A stretch of DNA of 59,507 nucleotides from an uncultured Alphaproteobacteria bacterium (lineage in GTDB: Bacteria; Pseudomonadota; Alphaproteobacteria; Caulobacterales; Hyphomonadaceae). How positions within the stretch are numbered: the first letter of the stretch is position 1; every line of letters begins with the position of its first letter. Positions 27,870 to 33,153 of the stretch are shown here, piece after piece. The position numbers and the translations under genes are program-made. Where the stretch lies: positions 1-59,507 of the forward strand of contig CAIKWZ010000019.1 of assembly GCA_903831255.1 (NCBI GenBank). The letters are read 5' to 3'. The notes beneath the pieces are model-generated. The model did no database searches. It was given only the letters and a program-made list of their open reading frames with translations, and was not told where the DNA came from.

Positions 27870-28009
27870 AGGCCCAGCCATAGGCGCTCGCCGGCGGCTA
27901 CCGCAAGATCTCACGCCTGTTGATATCCAGTCTGTTGCTCAGTCTCGCTCCGGATTAGGATGTCGGGACCACGCAGAAGCCTGAGCCGCTGGCGCCGGGG
28001 AGGTTCGAT

Positions 28010-28462
28010 ATGATCACAGATCCGGATGCCCCGATGCGGACGGGTGGTTGTCATTGCGGGGCTGTCCGGTTCGAGGTCGATCTGGTCGACGGCCTGCATA
28101 CAGCGCGCCGATGCGACTGCTCCTTTTGCCGGATGCGCGGCGCTGTGGCGGTATCAGGCAGACCCGGAGGCCTCAGGATCCTGTCAGGCGCGGACCAGCT
28201 GACCTGCTATCGCTTCAACACCGGCGCGGCGCGTCACTTTTTTTGTTCATGCTGCGGGATTTACACCCATCATGAGCGCCGGTCGCGTCCAGGCGAGTAT
28301 GGGGTGAACCTTGCCTGTCTCGACGGGCTGAGCCCGTTCGATCTCCTCTCGGTCGATGTTCTCGACGGTGTCCGTCACCCCATGGATCTGCCGCCGGGCG
28401 AGGGGCCGCGGATCGCCGGACGGCTGGTCTTTATTCTGACCGATCCGGTGACGCCCGACTGA
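28010..28462 (+). CDS. GFA family zinc-binding protein
   Basis: 150 residues of the glutathione-dependent formaldehyde-activating (GFA/CENP-V) fold. Zinc cysteines occur in GGCHCGAVRFEV, CDCSFCRMRGAV and CSCCGIYTHHERR, the order expected for the two zinc sites. GGGGAGG lies about 9 bases before the ATG. GFA itself was proposed to speed S-hydroxymethylglutathione formation, but most small homologues have no proven activity, so only family membership is claimed. It is divergent from hrpB and appears to stand alone. Confidence 0.88.
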   Translation: MITDPDAPMRTGGCHCGAVRFEVDLVDGLHTARRCDCSFCRMRGAVAVSGRPGGLRILSGADQLTCYRFNTGAARHFFCSCCGIYTHHERRSRPGEYGVNLACLDGLSPFDLLSVDVLDGVRHPMDLPPGEGPRIAGRLVFILTDPVTPD

Positions 28463-28513
28463 CGGCAGTCCCCAAAGGCGCGAGGAAGCCCGCGCGCGGC
28501 GCCCTGAGCTCAG

Positions 28514-29464
28514 TTATCCGTAACGCGCTCCCATGGCGCGCACCGTCTCGTGGAACTCGGCCATGGTCTCGGCGATGATCTCGGCAACCGGCTTGACGCC
28601 CGAGATGCGGCCGGCGACCTGCCCGGTCAGGGCGATCGAGGATTCCATGTCGCCACCGAAGTAAAGATCCTTCGCCGATCCGAACTCGGTCGTGATCGGC
28701 GGGCCGGAATAATCCGGCCCGAGCTCCCTCTCGAGGCGCTCCGTCTTGCGGGTTCTGAGTGCGCGCAGCGCCGGCCTCGAGAACTGGTTGAGGAAAAGCG
28801 TGTCGGTTTCCTCCGCATCGATGATGGCCTGCTTCCAGTTCATGTGAACCGGGCTCTCGGCGGCCGAGACCATGCGGGTGCCCATCTGCACCCCCTCGGC
28901 CCCAAGGGCGAAGGCGGCCGCCATTGTGCGCCCGCAGGTGATCCCGCCGGCGCCCACGATCGGGACATTGACCCGTTCGGCCACCAGAGGAAGGAGCACC
29001 ATCGTCATGACGGGCTGGGGATTCTTGAACCCGCCTCCCTCTCCGCCCTCGACGATCAGGCCGTCCACGCCCGCCTCGATGGCCTTGAGGGCGGCCTTGA
29101 GGGTAGGAACCACATGGTAGACCGTGAGGCCCGCTGCTTTGAGAACACCGCAGAACTTGGCGGGATCGCCTGCGCTGGTGCTGACGAAGCGCACGCCCTG
29201 ATCGATCACGAAATTGGCGATGCCGGGATCCCTTACAAAGGCCTGGGCGATGTTCACGCCGAAGGGCTTGTCGGTCAGAGTGCGCATCCGGGCGATTTCG
29301 CCCTTGATCGTATCAAGCTCTCCCGAAGAGGTTTCGATGATCCCCATGCCGCCGGCGTTCGAGACGGCGGAGGCCAGGGGCGCGCGGGCAATCCATCCCA
29401 TCGGCGCCTGAATGATCGGATACTCCACCCCAAGGGCTTCGGTGACGCGATTGCGGACGGCCAT
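28514..29464 (-). CDS. Nitronate monooxygenase (2-nitropropane dioxygenase family)
   Basis: 316 residues from ATG 29464 with AAGGAGA well placed. The TIM-barrel FMN enzyme is identified by VEYPIIQAPMGWIARAPLASAVSNAGGMGI at the N-terminus, the EGGEGGGFKNPQP loop and VGAGGITCGRTMAAAFALGAEGVQMGTRM, the phosphate-binding region for FMN. The family oxidises alkyl nitronates (for example propionate 3-nitronate) to aldehydes or ketones and nitrite. An in-frame ATG 13 codons upstream lacks a ribosome-binding site. Some relatives are enoyl-ACP reductases (FabK-like), but the motifs fit the monooxygenase group better. Confidence 0.85.
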   Translation of the reverse strand: MAVRNRVTEALGVEYPIIQAPMGWIARAPLASAVSNAGGMGIIETSSGELDTIKGEIARMRTLTDKPFGVNIAQAFVRDPGIANFVIDQGVRFVSTSAGDPAKFCGVLKAAGLTVYHVVPTLKAALKAIEAGVDGLIVEGGEGGGFKNPQPVMTMVLLPLVAERVNVPIVGAGGITCGRTMAAAFALGAEGVQMGTRMVSAAESPVHMNWKQAIIDAEETDTLFLNQFSRPALRALRTRKTERLERELGPDYSGPPITTEFGSAKDLYFGGDMESSIALTGQVAGRISGVKPVAEIIAETMAEFHETVRAMGARYG

Positions 29465-29646
29465 GATCGTTTGTCTCCTTCGAAACGTCAGTCGGTCTCT
29501 CATGCTCCCCCCTCAGCCGGCAAGGGCTTCGGACGCAGGCGGGACCGGATCATTGAACAAGAGCGCGACAGGCCCCTGGCCGTGCTGCTAGGGTCGACCT
29601 TCGCCCCATCAGGAGGGCGAGGTCGATTTTGGTATGGGAGCACGTC

Positions 29647-29955
29647 ATGTTTGCAGTCAGGTTGGCAGGCGTAGCCCTGGCCCTCGGACTTCTGGCCTCG
29701 ATCCTCTGGGCGTCCTTTGCAGGCGCCATTTTTGAGGAGGGCGGGGCCATTCTGGCGCTCCCCTGGGGGATCGTGACTTTTCTGGATCTCTATGCGGGAT
29801 TTCTGTTCGCAGCGCTGGTCATGCTTGTGTGCGAGCCGCGCCGTCCCCTCGGGGCAGTCCTGGCGATCAGCGTGTTTGTTCTGGGGAACGTTGTGACCCT
29901 CCTCTGGCTGGCGGTCAGGGCGCCGCTCTTCCTCCGCCGTCTGCGGGGCGAGTGA
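29647..29955 (+). CDS. Small three-helix membrane protein of unknown function
   Basis: 102 residues, nearly all hydrophobic: helices at about residues 2-22, 40-64 and 70-92, with a conserved-looking PWGIVTFLDLYAGFLFAALVML segment between the first two. The ATG at 29647 has GGGAG at 29635-29639; an upstream in-frame TTG at 29629 is less likely. I cannot name the family. It is probably an inner-membrane protein transcribed alone. Confidence 0.65.
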   Translation: MFAVRLAGVALALGLLASILWASFAGAIFEEGGAILALPWGIVTFLDLYAGFLFAALVMLVCEPRRPLGAVLAISVFVLGNVVTLLWLAVRAPLFLRRLRGE

Positions 29956-30043
29956 AGACCTGACGTCTGGCTGGGGTGTCGGGTCCGTCAACGCGCGGAG
30001 CCGGCCGCCTTCGGCCTCTCAACGAGCGGGCGTTCATGACGCC

Positions 30044-30676
30044 TCAGGCCTGATCCGGTCCGCTGACCTTGAGCATCTTGCGCACGCTGTCAGCCGACCA
30101 GTTGCGCCCTGTCGCCGTGGGGACGCCCCGTTCATTGAGGGTCCTGGCGATCGCTGCGAAGGTCTGGCCGGACTGTCTGAGCGGCAGGATGTCCGATAGC
30201 GCGCGCCGGATGCGTTCGGCTTTCCCCTCCCGCCATTCGTCTGTCCGTCGCCTCCAGTCGGAGAAGTGAAGACCTGGATCGAATATCTGGCCGTCGATCA
30301 GGATCTCGTCGGGGAAAAGTGTTTCGACGCGGACATGGCGGGCCGTCCACCAGCCGTTGAGCACGGAGTGGTCGCGCCATCTCGAGACGGCTGAAAAGTC
30401 CACGATCAGCAGACGCGCATCATGCGCTCGGCAGACCTCCGCCACCTTGTCCAGAGCCGGCAGGATGTATTCGCTTCCCCTGTCCGGCTCGATCTCGAGA
30501 AAGACCTCTTCAGCGATCAGACGATAGCCTTCCTCCTTCGCGTATCGACGGATCCGCTCGCACTGATAGCGGATCGTCAGGCTCGACCGGGCCGCCGCCT
30601 CGATCCCGTCGGGAAGTCGGGTGAACCCGGCCCAGGGCGCAGGAAGCGTCCAGTAAAAGCCGACCGCATGGATCAT
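30044..30676 (-). CDS. Serine-recombinase-like protein without catalytic serine region
   Basis: 210 residues. The N-terminal half keeps the resolvase-like pattern: SSLTIRYQCERIRRYAKEEGYRLIAEEVF, DRGSEYILPALDKVAEVC, RLLIVDFSAVSRWRDH. The usual YxRxS start with the nucleophilic serine is replaced by VGFYWTLPAPWAGFTRLP, so strand exchange is not expected. The C-terminal part (SGQTFAAIARTLNERGVPTATGRNWSADSVRKML) is the recombinase DNA-binding helix region. It may act as a DNA-binding regulator. It is transcribed divergently from the phosphatase/ADP-ribosylglycohydrolase fusion, with 106 bases between the starts. Confidence 0.65.
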   Translation of the reverse strand: MIHAVGFYWTLPAPWAGFTRLPDGIEAAARSSLTIRYQCERIRRYAKEEGYRLIAEEVFLEIEPDRGSEYILPALDKVAEVCRAHDARLLIVDFSAVSRWRDHSVLNGWWTARHVRVETLFPDEILIDGQIFDPGLHFSDWRRRTDEWREGKAERIRRALSDILPLRQSGQTFAAIARTLNERGVPTATGRNWSADSVRKMLKVSGPDQA

Positions 30677-30782
30677 GGGAGGGTCCTTCGGAAGCCGATC
30701 CGGCAGACGGAAAATCCCGAGGGATCAGACGAAGGCCGAACTTGCGATTATCCAGATCGTCGAACATGCGGAGACGCGATCG

Positions 30783-32699
30783 ATGACCTTACCCCATACC
30801 AGATCCGATGAGACGCTCAATCGTCTTCACGGGATCATTCGGGAGGCAGGGGCCATGATCCGCGCAGAGTTTCACAGGGGGGACGGGCCGCGACGGCGGG
30901 GCGCCTCGGCGCTGATCGACCTAGAGGTCGAAAGAGTGCTGAGGCGTCGTCTTCTGGATCTCTGTCCGGGAGGCTGGCTTGGCGAGGAGACCGGCGTCGC
31001 GAAGGGGCCGGGGGACCATCTCTGGGTGGTTGATCCTCATGATGGGACGCACGACTTTCTCTCCGGCCATCGCGGGTCTTCGATATCCGTCGCGCTTCTC
31101 TGTGAGGGCGAACCCATTCTCTCTGTGGTTTATGCGCCTCTTTATCCCGACGACGACGGAGACATGATTTCATGGAGGCGGGGCGCGCCCATCCGGCGCA
31201 ATGGCCGTCCGATCGAAGTCGATCCGCAGGCCGCAGAGGGGGTTCTGGCGATGAGCCTCGAGGCCAGGGAACGGGCCGCTGAGGATGGACGATATCTCGA
31301 GAGGATGCGGATCCGCGCCCTTCCGAGCCCGGCCTACCGGCTCGCCCTTGCCGCTGCCGGAGAAGTGGAGGCGGGCGTCAGTCTCACCTCCGCTCTCTCT
31401 GCCTGGGACCTCGCGGCAGGCGCGGCGCTTCTAGCGGCCTCGGGCCGCACGCTTGTCGATCTCCAGGGGCGCCGGATCGGTCCGTGCGAGGGCGCCGACG
31501 GCTGTATCGGCGCGGCTCCCGCGCTGGCGGAAAGGCTCGTTCACGTGCTCGGTAGCGCCTCGGCGGGACGTCGGCGCCGATCAGAATCGGTGCGAACCGG
31601 TCCCTTCGCAGCGGATGCCCGGCGGCTCGATCGGGCTCAGGGATGCCTTCTTGGTCAGCTGGCGGGAGATGCGCTGGGATCCATGGTCGAGTTCATGTCC
31701 GCTTCAGAAATCCTGAGGCGTCATCCTTCCGGTATTCGTCGCCTCGCCGACGGAGGCGTCTGGTCGCTGATCGCCGGTCAGCCCACGGACGACAGCGAGA
31801 TGGCGCTCGCACTGGCGCGTTCCCTTTCCGATCAGGGCGCCTGGGACCGGGCGCAGGTCTCGGCGGCCTATCTGCGCTGGCGGACCTCTGGTCCGTTCGA
31901 TGTCGGATCGACCACAGCCAGAGGTCTGGCCGCCCTTGCCGGCAAGGGATCCCCGGATGAGGACAGTCAGTCGAACGGCGCCCTGATGCGGGTCAGTCCG
32001 ATCGGTGTTTTCGCGCACGCAGATCCGGGTCTCGCAGCGGATCTGGCGGCTGAGGATGCGCGCCTCACTCATCCCCATCCGGTCTGTCAGGCGGCGAACC
32101 GGGCGTTTGCGGCCGCGATCGCGGTCGGGGTCTCGGGAGCGGACGCAAGGGAGATGCTCGAGACCGCTCTGGCGGTCGCCGGCGACGGCGAGGGTGCCGA
32201 GACCGTACGTCGACGGCTCCGCGCATCGCGGCGCGACGCGCCCGCCGATCTCGGCGCATCCATGGGCTGGACCCCTCCGGCGCTGCAGAATGCCTTTCAT
32301 CAGCTCCTGCGCGGGGTGTCGCTCGAGGAGGCGGTGGTCGACACTGTCGGCATGGGTGGAGACACGGACACCAATGGCGCGATCTGCGGAGCGCTCATCG
32401 GCGCCCTGCAGGGTCGTGAGAGCATCCCCCTTCAATGGCGAAACCGGATTTTGACCTGTCGGCCGGTTCGCGCCCCCAACGTCACTCATCCAAGGCCTCG
32501 CGAGTACTGGCCGGACGATGCCCTTGAGCTCGCCGGGGATTTGCTGACCGCTCGCATGAGGGGCGGCGGAGGCGCGCCCGTAATGCGCGAACCCGGCGCC
32601 CTCGGGTCGGGGGAGCGATCCGGTCGGGGAATGGACAAAGCCGGCCCGGGCGTGTCCAGACGGAGCGATGGCTTGTCAGGACAGACAAAGGAGGGATGA
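30783..32699 (+). CDS. Inositol monophosphatase / ADP-ribosylglycohydrolase fusion
   Basis: 638 residues with two catalytic domains. Residues about 1-250 are a Mg-dependent inositol-monophosphatase-type fold: LGEETG, VVDPHDGTHDFLSG and SAWDLAAGAALLAASG supply all usual metal ligands. After an arginine-rich linker, residues about 285-590 are an ADP-ribosylglycohydrolase: GCLLGQLAGDALGSMVEF, PTDDSEMALALA, NGALMRVSPIGVF and GMGGDTDTNGAICGALIGA. The tail is probably disordered. ARH enzymes remove ADP-ribose from proteins or small molecules; phosphatases of the first type act on inositol phosphates, PAP or sugar phosphates. A joint role in clearing phosphorylated ADP-ribose species is inference. 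GGAG precedes ATG 30783. Confidence 0.88.
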   Translation: MTLPHTRSDETLNRLHGIIREAGAMIRAEFHRGDGPRRRGASALIDLEVERVLRRRLLDLCPGGWLGEETGVAKGPGDHLWVVDPHDGTHDFLSGHRGSSISVALLCEGEPILSVVYAPLYPDDDGDMISWRRGAPIRRNGRPIEVDPQAAEGVLAMSLEARERAAEDGRYLERMRIRALPSPAYRLALAAAGEVEAGVSLTSALSAWDLAAGAALLAASGRTLVDLQGRRIGPCEGADGCIGAAPALAERLVHVLGSASAGRRRRSESVRTGPFAADARRLDRAQGCLLGQLAGDALGSMVEFMSASEILRRHPSGIRRLADGGVWSLIAGQPTDDSEMALALARSLSDQGAWDRAQVSAAYLRWRTSGPFDVGSTTARGLAALAGKGSPDEDSQSNGALMRVSPIGVFAHADPGLAADLAAEDARLTHPHPVCQAANRAFAAAIAVGVSGADAREMLETALAVAGDGEGAETVRRRLRASRRDAPADLGASMGWTPPALQNAFHQLLRGVSLEEAVVDTVGMGGDTDTNGAICGALIGALQGRESIPLQWRNRILTCRPVRAPNVTHPRPREYWPDDALELAGDLLTARMRGGGGAPVMREPGALGSGERSGRGMDKAGPGVSRRSDGLSGQTKEG

Positions 32700-32701
32700 A
32701 C

Positions 32702-33133
32702 ATGGGCCCAGTGCCGAAGGCGGACGCTTATGGCGCCGTCCTGATCAACGCATCGGGGGAGGTTCTCTTGCGGGAGCCCTCCGGGCATTTCGGAGGCTAT
32801 GTCTGGACCTTCGCCAAGGGGAGATCCGATCCGGGCGAGACCCCGGCTCAGACCGCGCTCCGAGAGGTTCGGGAGGAGACCGGGTATGACGCCGAGATCC
32901 TCGCCGTCATTCCGACCGCGTTTCCGGGAACGACGACCGTCACCGCCTTCTTTCTGGCCGCCCCAATCGGAGAGCCGGGCGCATTCAGTCGCGAGACCGC
33001 ATCGATCAGATGGGTAAGCTTTGAGGCGGCGGCTGGTCTCATCGCTTTGACCAAAACGAGTTATGGCCGCCAGCGCGACCTCGATATCCTCAAGGCGGCG
33101 CGGGTCCTTCACGCGACCCTCGACAGAGGCTGA
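32702..33133 (+). CDS. Nudix hydrolase
   Basis: 143 residues with a perfect Nudix box between about residues 40 and 62 (GRSDPGETPAQTALREVREE, then TGY). Start 32702 is preferred over 32696 because AAAGGAGGG ends at 32695, about 6 bases upstream. It lies only two bases after the fusion gene, so the two must be co-transcribed. Nudix enzymes cleave nucleoside diphosphates linked to another group. Next to an ADP-ribosylglycohydrolase, ADP-ribose is an attractive substrate (giving AMP and ribose 5-phosphate), but the box alone does not establish this. Confidence 0.9.
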   Translation: MGPVPKADAYGAVLINASGEVLLREPSGHFGGYVWTFAKGRSDPGETPAQTALREVREETGYDAEILAVIPTAFPGTTTVTAFFLAAPIGEPGAFSRETASIRWVSFEAAAGLIALTKTSYGRQRDLDILKAARVLHATLDRG

Positions 33134-33153
33134 GAGTTCGGGGCCGGGGCGTC

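What the first reader, a model, noticed from the sequence alone, without database searches (positions are those of the whole stretch)
30044..33133. Candidate ADP-ribose processing module: phosphatase-ARH fusion, Nudix hydrolase, divergent recombinase-like protein
One polypeptide joins an intact inositol-monophosphatase-type domain (GEETG, DPHDGT, WDLAAG) to an intact ADP-ribosylglycohydrolase (GDALG, PTDDSE, GGDTDT). A Nudix hydrolase starts two bases later. Established knowledge: ARH enzymes release ADP-ribose, Nudix enzymes can cleave it, and this phosphatase class removes phosphate from nucleotides such as PAP. Inference: the operon may clear a phosphorylated ADP-ribose derivative or reverse an ADP-ribosylation signal, with the divergent recombinase-like protein as regulator. 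This is the strongest candidate for an undescribed system in the window.
Basis: partly seen in the sequence, partly recalled or inferred. Interest (0 to 1): 0.72.

Follow-up and report, generated by a model that had tools for sequence, protein, structure and literature searches.

The report
Mobile ADP-ribose removal module, recombinase-derived regulator
A small mobile gene cluster makes a two-part enzyme predicted to strip ADP-ribose from molecules and remove a phosphate, and it appears to be switched by a former DNA recombinase that has lost its cutting residue; it may help bacteria undo modifications made by viruses.

Summary
One ORF joins an intact IMPase-type phosphatase to an intact ADP-ribosylglycohydrolase (ARH). 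A Nudix gene follows; a recombinase-like gene (REC) diverges.

The fusion is widespread: 80 of 81 homologues examined show both motif sets. In 63 distant loci it has no REC, and no Nudix gene next door (some flanks are short).

In Alphaproteobacteria it forms a rare mobile pair with REC. Nudix is optional (6 of 20 REC-bearing open fusions); an 86-aa protein replaces it in 7 of 20.

New here: REC has lost the serine-recombinase catalytic motifs. A conserved DNA element, CGGAAAATCCCGA, lies beside it at 25 of 26 REC loci and has no match in the 63 distant loci. The same REC and element also stand before ARH genes with another phosphatase: a DSP/PTP fusion, or a calcineurin-like neighbour.

This exchange fits the "ARG-centric" systems that Iyer et al. 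2022 predicted to reverse viral ADP-ribosylation. I read the window as a new variant of that predicted kind. The REC–element–ARH–phosphatase architecture is well supported; DNA binding, substrate and anti-viral role are inferred.

The parts
30044..30676 (-). REC: recombinase-derived candidate regulator, 210 aa; resolvase-like N-terminal domain without the catalytic motifs, C-terminal recombinase helix-turn-helix region
30708..30721 (+). Candidate operator CGGAAAATCCCGAG in the divergent intergenic region
   Evidence: core present at 18 of 18 REC-bearing loci tested, one site each, same orientation; no match in 719 kb of the 63 distant loci; only exact 14-base copy in the own genome
30783..32699 (+). 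FUS: phosphatase-ARH fusion protein, 638 aa
30807..31571 (+). IMPase-type phosphatase domain (model residues 9-263); GEE, DPHDGT, WDLAAG
31614..32567 (+). ADP-ribosylglycohydrolase domain (model residues 278-595); GDALG, PTDDSE, PFDVG, GGDTDT
32702..33133 (+). Nudix hydrolase with intact Nudix box (alternative start 32696); optional accessory gene
   Evidence: PF00293; Nudix box and neighbour counts
27915..33153 (.). Inserted block (GFA-like, NMO, small membrane gene, REC, FUS, Nudix) between hrpB and mntP; in the 9 congeners whose mntP locus was read, hrpB lies beside mntP (in one, L113, with a piece like the small membrane gene between)

Best explanation
The module is a mobile, inducible ADP-ribose-removal unit. 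REC is a serine recombinase that has lost its cutting chemistry and kept its DNA-binding part. It probably binds CGGAAAATCCCGA between the two divergent genes and controls both itself and the fusion gene (anatomy shown, binding inferred). When the cell's molecules are ADP-ribosylated by something foreign, such as a phage or a rival's transferase, the ARH half removes the ADP-ribose and the phosphatase half takes a phosphate off that product or a derivative of it, for example the 2'-phosphate of NADP-derived phospho-ADP-ribose or a product of Nudix cleavage (inferred). The Nudix protein, where present, splits the ADP-ribose further (inferred). REC may be released by one of these small molecules (speculative).
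For: Linkage: REC-first searches (5 plasmid records, 2 viral contigs, 5 of 374 genomes of the family of L022's species) and fusion-first searches give 26 distinct REC loci: 23 with an open ARH gene divergent to REC, 2 with a broken fusion, 1 with none. Element: 25 of 26; no match in the 63 distant loci, nor at L029, a fusion of the same clade without REC. Exchange of the phosphatase behind one regulator: IMPase fusion (20 of the 23 open loci), DSP/PTP fusion (L139, PF22784), neighbouring calcineurin-like gene (L138), uracil-DNA-glycosylase-like neighbour and no phosphatase seen (L137), which suggests that phosphatase and ARH act in one pathway. Catalytic residues of both halves are near-invariant in 36 diverse sequences. 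76 of 81 fusions have H, N or Q in DPxDGT where 20 of 20 such motifs at paralogous phosphatase loci of the own genome and congeners have I, V or L, which points to a different substrate. Mobility: on plasmids; 2 of 15 genomes of the genus have it, 9 others show the site without it; 1 of 385 genomes of the class. Precedent for an IMPase-fold enzyme acting on NADP: MJ0917 (PMC8553519, passages). Precedent for the system type: PMC9503650 section 3.8.
Confidence: 0.45

Rival explanations
1. House-cleaning or salvage: the fusion is a phosphatase plus N-glycosidase that takes apart a free, damaged or phosphorylated nucleotide (ADP-ribose phosphate, NADP fragments), with Nudix feeding it; no conflict is involved.
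For: The fusion is found across phyla as a single gene; an IMPase-fold NADP phosphatase exists; the phosphatase is joined to the ARH, as if in one catabolic route.
Against: Rare and patchy: 2 of 398 genomes in the order, 1 of 385 in the class; plasmid-borne copies; exchange of phosphatase and accessory genes behind one regulator.
Confidence: 0.25
2. Orphan immunity protein: the ARH half neutralises ADP-ribosyltransferase toxins of competing bacteria, like Tri1.
Against: None of the 14 window proteins scanned matches a transferase family; NCBIfam Tri1 score 82 against a cut-off of 490.
Confidence: 0.13
3. Unrelated enzymes glued by chance: a sugar or inositol phosphatase and an ARH-fold enzyme with different substrates, REC being a leftover of mobility.
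For: No biochemistry; the solved phosphatases listed as nearest are inositol monophosphatases.
Against: Fusion and both active sites kept over great distances; conserved element and purifying selection on REC.
Confidence: 0.12
4. REC is a working recombinase and the conserved element is its crossover site.
For: Serine-recombinase fold; the element has an imperfect inverted repeat CGGA-N13-TCCG, and in two loci a dyad GCGGAAA-N9-TTTCCGC.
Against: GxYWTxP instead of YxRVS in 25 of 25 and no DRLxR in 25 of 25 sequences, unlike two real recombinases from loci L032 and L138.
Confidence: 0.04

Closest known systems
ARG-centric host systems predicted to counter viral ADP-ribosylation (Iyer et al. 2022, PMC9503650; section 3.8 read in full, other parts as passages; a computational prediction)
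   Same: ARH coupled to a phosphatase in one polypeptide or next door; no transferase among the window genes scanned; Nudix or WYL proteins nearby in some loci; core with exchangeable modules
   Different: Phosphatase is IMPase-type (the section names rhodanese-phosphatase, calcineurin-like, HD and HAD types); the candidate regulator is a recombinase-derived protein with a conserved DNA element instead of a Nudix-HTH or WYL-HTH factor; no DNA-binding domain found in the window's Nudix protein
DraG / dinitrogenase reductase-activating glycohydrolase
   Same: ARH fold, metal-site motifs; an Asp (invariant in 36 of 36) that aligns with DraG D97 by my count from the alignment and the numbering
   Different: N-terminal phosphatase; NCBIfam DraG score 158 against cut-off 337. 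A DraT search of the own genome gave nothing, but its control rang nowhere, so it is uninformative
Tri1 ADP-ribosylarginine hydrolase immunity protein
   Different: no partner toxin gene among the window genes scanned; the extra domain here is a phosphatase
IMPase / CysQ / HisN phosphatases, including the NADP phosphatase-NAD kinase fusion MJ0917
   Same: fold and metal-binding motifs; precedent for an IMPase-fold domain fused to a NAD(P) enzyme
   Different: H/N/Q instead of I/V/L in DPxDGT; fused to ARH
Small serine recombinases / resolvases
   Same: N-terminal fold and C-terminal recombinase region
   Different: catalytic motifs lost; tied to an ARH gene

Membership tests
ARG-centric systems (Iyer et al. 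2022) | ARH domain as core | tested here: met
   PF03747 E 4e-65
ARG-centric systems (Iyer et al. 2022) | no genomically coupled transferase or sirtuin | tested here: met
   no such Pfam match among the 14 window proteins scanned, between 22314 and 39847. Elsewhere a SIR2-family gene lies at the edge of L137, beyond an IS91 transposase and an integrase
ARG-centric systems (Iyer et al. 2022) | phosphatase coupled to the ARH (a little over 55% of their neighbourhoods) | tested here: met
   IMPase fused; DSP/PTP fused in L139, calcineurin-like next door in L138
ARG-centric systems (Iyer et al. 2022) | Nudix-HTH or WYL-HTH transcription factor (over 42% of their systems) | tested here: not met
   Window Nudix is 145 aa with only NUDIX-family matches; the candidate factor is REC. 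WYL genes lie near related loci L114, L115, L137. Not a feature of every system in the paper, so I call the window a variant, not a plain member
ARG-centric systems (Iyer et al. 2022) | rapid sequence evolution | tested here: inconclusive
   dN/dS 0.24 for the fusion against 0.03-0.09 in hrpB, NMO, the membrane gene, MntP, RlmD, but 0.16 and 0.28 in ModC and ModA
ARH family (PF03747) | metal-site motifs TDDxE and GDxD | tested here: met
   D336, D337, E339, D527, D529 in 36 of 36, T528 in 35 of 36
ARH family (PF03747) | ADP-ribosyl hydrolase activity | not testable with these tools
   no assay
IMPase superfamily (PF00459) | GEE, DPxDGT, WDxAAG metal site | tested here: met
   E69, D84, G88, T89 in 36 of 36; E68, D87, D209 in 35 of 36
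Serine recombinases | resolvase-like fold | tested here: met
Serine recombinases | catalytic Ser and Arg residues | tested here: not met
   GxYWTxP in 25 of 25 and DRLxR in 0 of 25; two real recombinases keep YxRVS and DRLAR. Which residues are catalytic is recalled
Toxin-immunity pairs (Tri1 type) | adjacent transferase toxin | tested here: not met
   no transferase match among 14 scanned window proteins; a divergent toxin without Pfam match is not excluded

The most novel reading that the evidence does not exclude
REC is the founder of a new class of transcription sensors, serine recombinases that lost catalysis, whose invariant pocket (GxYWTxP, TxRYQ, PDR) senses ADP-ribose or a phosphorylated derivative. 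With one near-universal operator it has been plugged in front of unrelated ARH-phosphatase combinations as a portable alarm for foreign ADP-ribosylation. The IMPase half is a dedicated 2'-phospho-ADP-ribose phosphatase that lets the ARH clear NADP-derived modifications.
Probability: 0.15. Interest if true: 0.8.

Novelty: new variant of a known kind. Interest (0 to 1): 0.55.

Why it matters
If right, bacteria carry regulated, exchangeable kits that reverse foreign ADP-ribosylation, a counter-measure so far predicted (PMC9503650). The conserved element gives a direct handle: a gel-shift and a reporter would show what switches the kit on, and the fusion enzyme gives a defined protein on which to find the phosphatase substrate. 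It would also add a regulator evolved from a recombinase.

Tried and rejected
Nudix as core partner: rejected. It is found at 6 of 20 REC-bearing open fusions (directly next at window, L027, L023, L036 and L114; about 1.1 kb away behind another ORF in L035; degenerate box in L036) and next to 0 of 63 distant fusions; one Nudix box lies 2.1 kb away on the other strand in L094. Five of the 63 have under 600 bp downstream, six under 900 bp upstream.

Defence-island membership: not established. 78 neighbour proteins against PADLOC gave mad3 models in 3 members and Wadjet and other models in one member each, the Wadjet genes probably those of L028 by their order and size. The tool shows only 25 of 34 PADLOC and 25 of 89 Pfam families. 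Of the 108 neighbours listed I gave 78, leaving out L027's genes, the Nudix genes, edge-cut genes and a few others. PADLOC matches of the module's own proteins were weak (REC to Csx19, 19 bits; Nudix to PDC-S07, 29 bits).

Transferase searches: PF01129 in 41 genomes and PF07357 in the own genome found nothing, but their controls rang nowhere, so they show nothing.

REC profile against PDB sequences: no meaningful match. REC in phage records: no match. The C-terminal part of the longer Nudix relatives: no Pfam match, PDB sequences best E 0.96. The 86-aa protein: no Pfam match.

Literature: 'ADP-ribosylglycohydrolase' with 'inositol monophosphatase' 0 papers; with 'serine recombinase' 0 papers. 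Searches gave listings; I opened PMC9503650, PMC8883491 and PMC8553519 only. The library holds open-licence PMC papers, so a description elsewhere is possible.
Full report

How common is the fusion. A scan of a collection with one genome per species gave 366 related stretches, the best 80 kept, from Alphaproteobacteria to records labelled Chloroflexota, Acidobacteria, Myxococcota and Hydrogenedentes. By motif search 80 of 81 (window plus 80 loci) show both the phosphatase and the ARH motifs; L099 lacked the ARH patterns in my search although tblastn aligns it across both halves. In alignment A2 (36 sequences) the metal-binding residues of both halves are invariant or changed in one sequence (the phosphatase site of L090 is degenerate). 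The residue x in DPxDGT is H, N or Q in 76 of 81 fusions (L 3, D 1, S 1), but I, V or L in 20 of 20 such motifs at paralogous phosphatase loci of the own genome and congeners. That marks a subfamily and suggests its own substrate. In the same order 2 of 398 genomes, in the class 1 of 385, carry it at E <= 1e-60. None of the 26 phage records with a match covers 80% of the query; 4 of 142 plasmid records do.

The window copy arrived by insertion. Two of 15 genomes of the genus have the full fusion. Eleven of the 15 gave an mntP hit. In the 9 besides G000 and G004, mntP lies beside hrpB, with rlmD on the other side in the 7 whose locus reached it. In the window a block with a GFA-like gene, NMO, a small membrane gene, REC, the fusion and Nudix sits between hrpB and mntP; L027, the close relative, shows the same order (GFA-like gene not checked there). 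One congener (L113) has a piece similar to the small membrane gene at that site, so that gene may be older; six other congeners have an NMO relative, at 69-72% identity. Synonymous divergence of the module between window and L027 (0.55-0.65) is close to that of seven flanking genes (0.40-0.60) and dN/dS is 0.13-0.24, so the module was probably inherited and kept since their split.

The core is REC + element + ARH + phosphatase. Among the loci closest to the window (window, L022-L038, and L114 from a Rhodobacter plasmid), REC is divergent to the fusion in 18 of 19; L029 lacks it although its fusion falls inside the REC-bearing clade (20 tips, support 1.0; 84-tip FastTree, L003 and L100 left out). 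A diverged REC, in two reading frames, stands beside the fusion on an Azospirillum plasmid (L116); that fusion lies outside the clade. No REC was found in the 63 distant loci L039-L101, six of which have under 900 bp upstream. I then searched with REC itself: plasmids gave 5 records, viral contigs 2 loci (L135, which repeats L023; and L136), and 374 genomes of the family of L022's species gave 5, of which two repeat L022 and L026. In all, 26 distinct REC loci: 23 have an open ARH gene divergent to REC, 2 a broken fusion (L136, L149), 1 none (L150, behind an Hsp70-like gene by eye). Nineteen of the 26 were found through the fusion, which biases that count. The REC-first searches alone returned 12 distinct loci (L022, L023, L026, L114, L116, L136-L139, L148-L150): 9 with an open ARH gene, 2 with a broken fusion, 1 with none.

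A conserved DNA element. Between REC and the ARH gene lies CGGAAAATCCCGA: across 18 loci 12 of its 13 columns print at 1.5 bits or more and the other at 1.35. A weaker stretch (TCCG, 0.50-1.69 bits) follows 13 columns after CGGA; columns 5 to 12 before the element's first G are at 0.01-0.38 bits. It is found once per locus, in one orientation, 72-82 bp before the fusion's start in 15 of 18 (62, 86 and 101 bp in L034, L031 and L032; several start codons are my estimates). There is no other match in the 208 kb of loci L022-L038 and none in 719 kb of the distant loci. A shorter pattern matched one unrelated locus, L007, among 125. In the own genome the only exact 14-base copy is this one, but with up to 2 mismatches there are 51 matches against 21 for the reversed control, so weaker sites elsewhere are possible. 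L116, L136, L137, L138, L139, L148 and L149 also have it (L116 with C as last base); I found none at L150: 25 of 26. Since REC identities to the window fall to 30-38% at L137-L139, neutral sequence would long have changed; I take the element as REC's operator, which is an inference.

The phosphatase is exchanged behind the same regulator. In 20 of the 23 open loci the ARH is fused to the IMPase-type domain. In Cereibacter (L139) REC and the element head an ARH fused to a DSP/PTP-type phosphatase (PF22784, 7.1e-13); in Paracoccus marcusii (L138) an ARH with a calcineurin-like gene next; in P. zhejiangensis (L137) an ARH with a uracil-DNA-glycosylase-like gene next and a WYL gene on the other side of REC. 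The third position also varies: Nudix at 6 of 20 REC-bearing open fusions (window, L027, L023, L035, L036 with a degenerate box, L114) and an 86-aa protein, fused or separate, at 7 of 20, never both; a weak match to the latter also follows the broken fusion of L149.

Comparison. Section 3.8 of Iyer et al. 2022 (PMC9503650, this section read in full) predicts ARH-centred host systems without a coupled transferase, with a phosphatase fused or adjacent, a Nudix or WYL regulator, and exchangeable modules, acting against viral ADP-ribosylation. The present module fits the template but has a phosphatase type and a regulator that the paper's main text does not name (figures and supplements not seen). 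Hence 'new variant of a known kind', with the caution that the kind itself is a prediction. From PMC8553519 I saw passages only: the IMPase-like part of MJ0917 has NADP phosphatase activity. From PMC8883491 I saw passages only: ARH1 reverses arginine ADP-ribosylation and, in vitro, the RNAylation made by phage T4 ModB, which makes reversal of phage modification chemically reasonable.

Limits. No activity, binding or phenotype is tested. Neighbourhood data cover the best 80 of 366 stretches, with a home-made gene caller whose calls in G+C-rich contigs include antisense errors. REC-bearing neighbourhoods are mixed, and only some hold restriction-type or Wadjet genes.

Noticed in passing
L022, L024, L025, L031 (fused to the fusion's C-terminus); L028 7785-8045, L033, L038 (separate, L038 a 50-residue match): An 86-aa protein without Pfam match (KLDGFIExAVxAA...G) takes the place that Nudix has in the window.
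   Followed up: partly
L023 3069-4382, L035 8501-9646, L036 7682-8965; L114 8359-9105: Nudix relatives carry up to about 290 further residues with no Pfam match; in L114 the same part (54% identity to that of L023, 242 residues) is a separate gene behind the Nudix gene.
   Followed up: partly
L150 6642-7319: A lone REC relative behind an Hsp70-like gene, with neither ARH nor the DNA element found.
   Followed up: no
14 loci, mostly of the Rhodopila/Acetobacteraceae group, e.g. L044 7788-8420: A conserved gene of about 210 aa follows the fusion directly, overlapping or within a few bases.
   Followed up: no
L117 4998-5786 and other Pseudomonas plasmid records: Proteins annotated as inositol monophosphatase resemble residues 12-186 or less of the fusion at about 37-45% identity; the one looked at (L117, 262 aa) has no ARH part.
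   Followed up: no
L136 (IMG/VR contig): REC beside a fusion cut short and near an integrase-like ORF (by eye): decay of the module on a possible mobile element.
   Followed up: no
L030 8121-8645 and L137 3251-3877: A uracil-DNA-glycosylase-superfamily gene lies downstream of the ARH gene in two otherwise different REC loci.
   Followed up: no
own genome, element with up to 2 mismatches: 51 near-matches of the 14-base element against 21 for the reversed control; not examined for position relative to genes.
   Followed up: no
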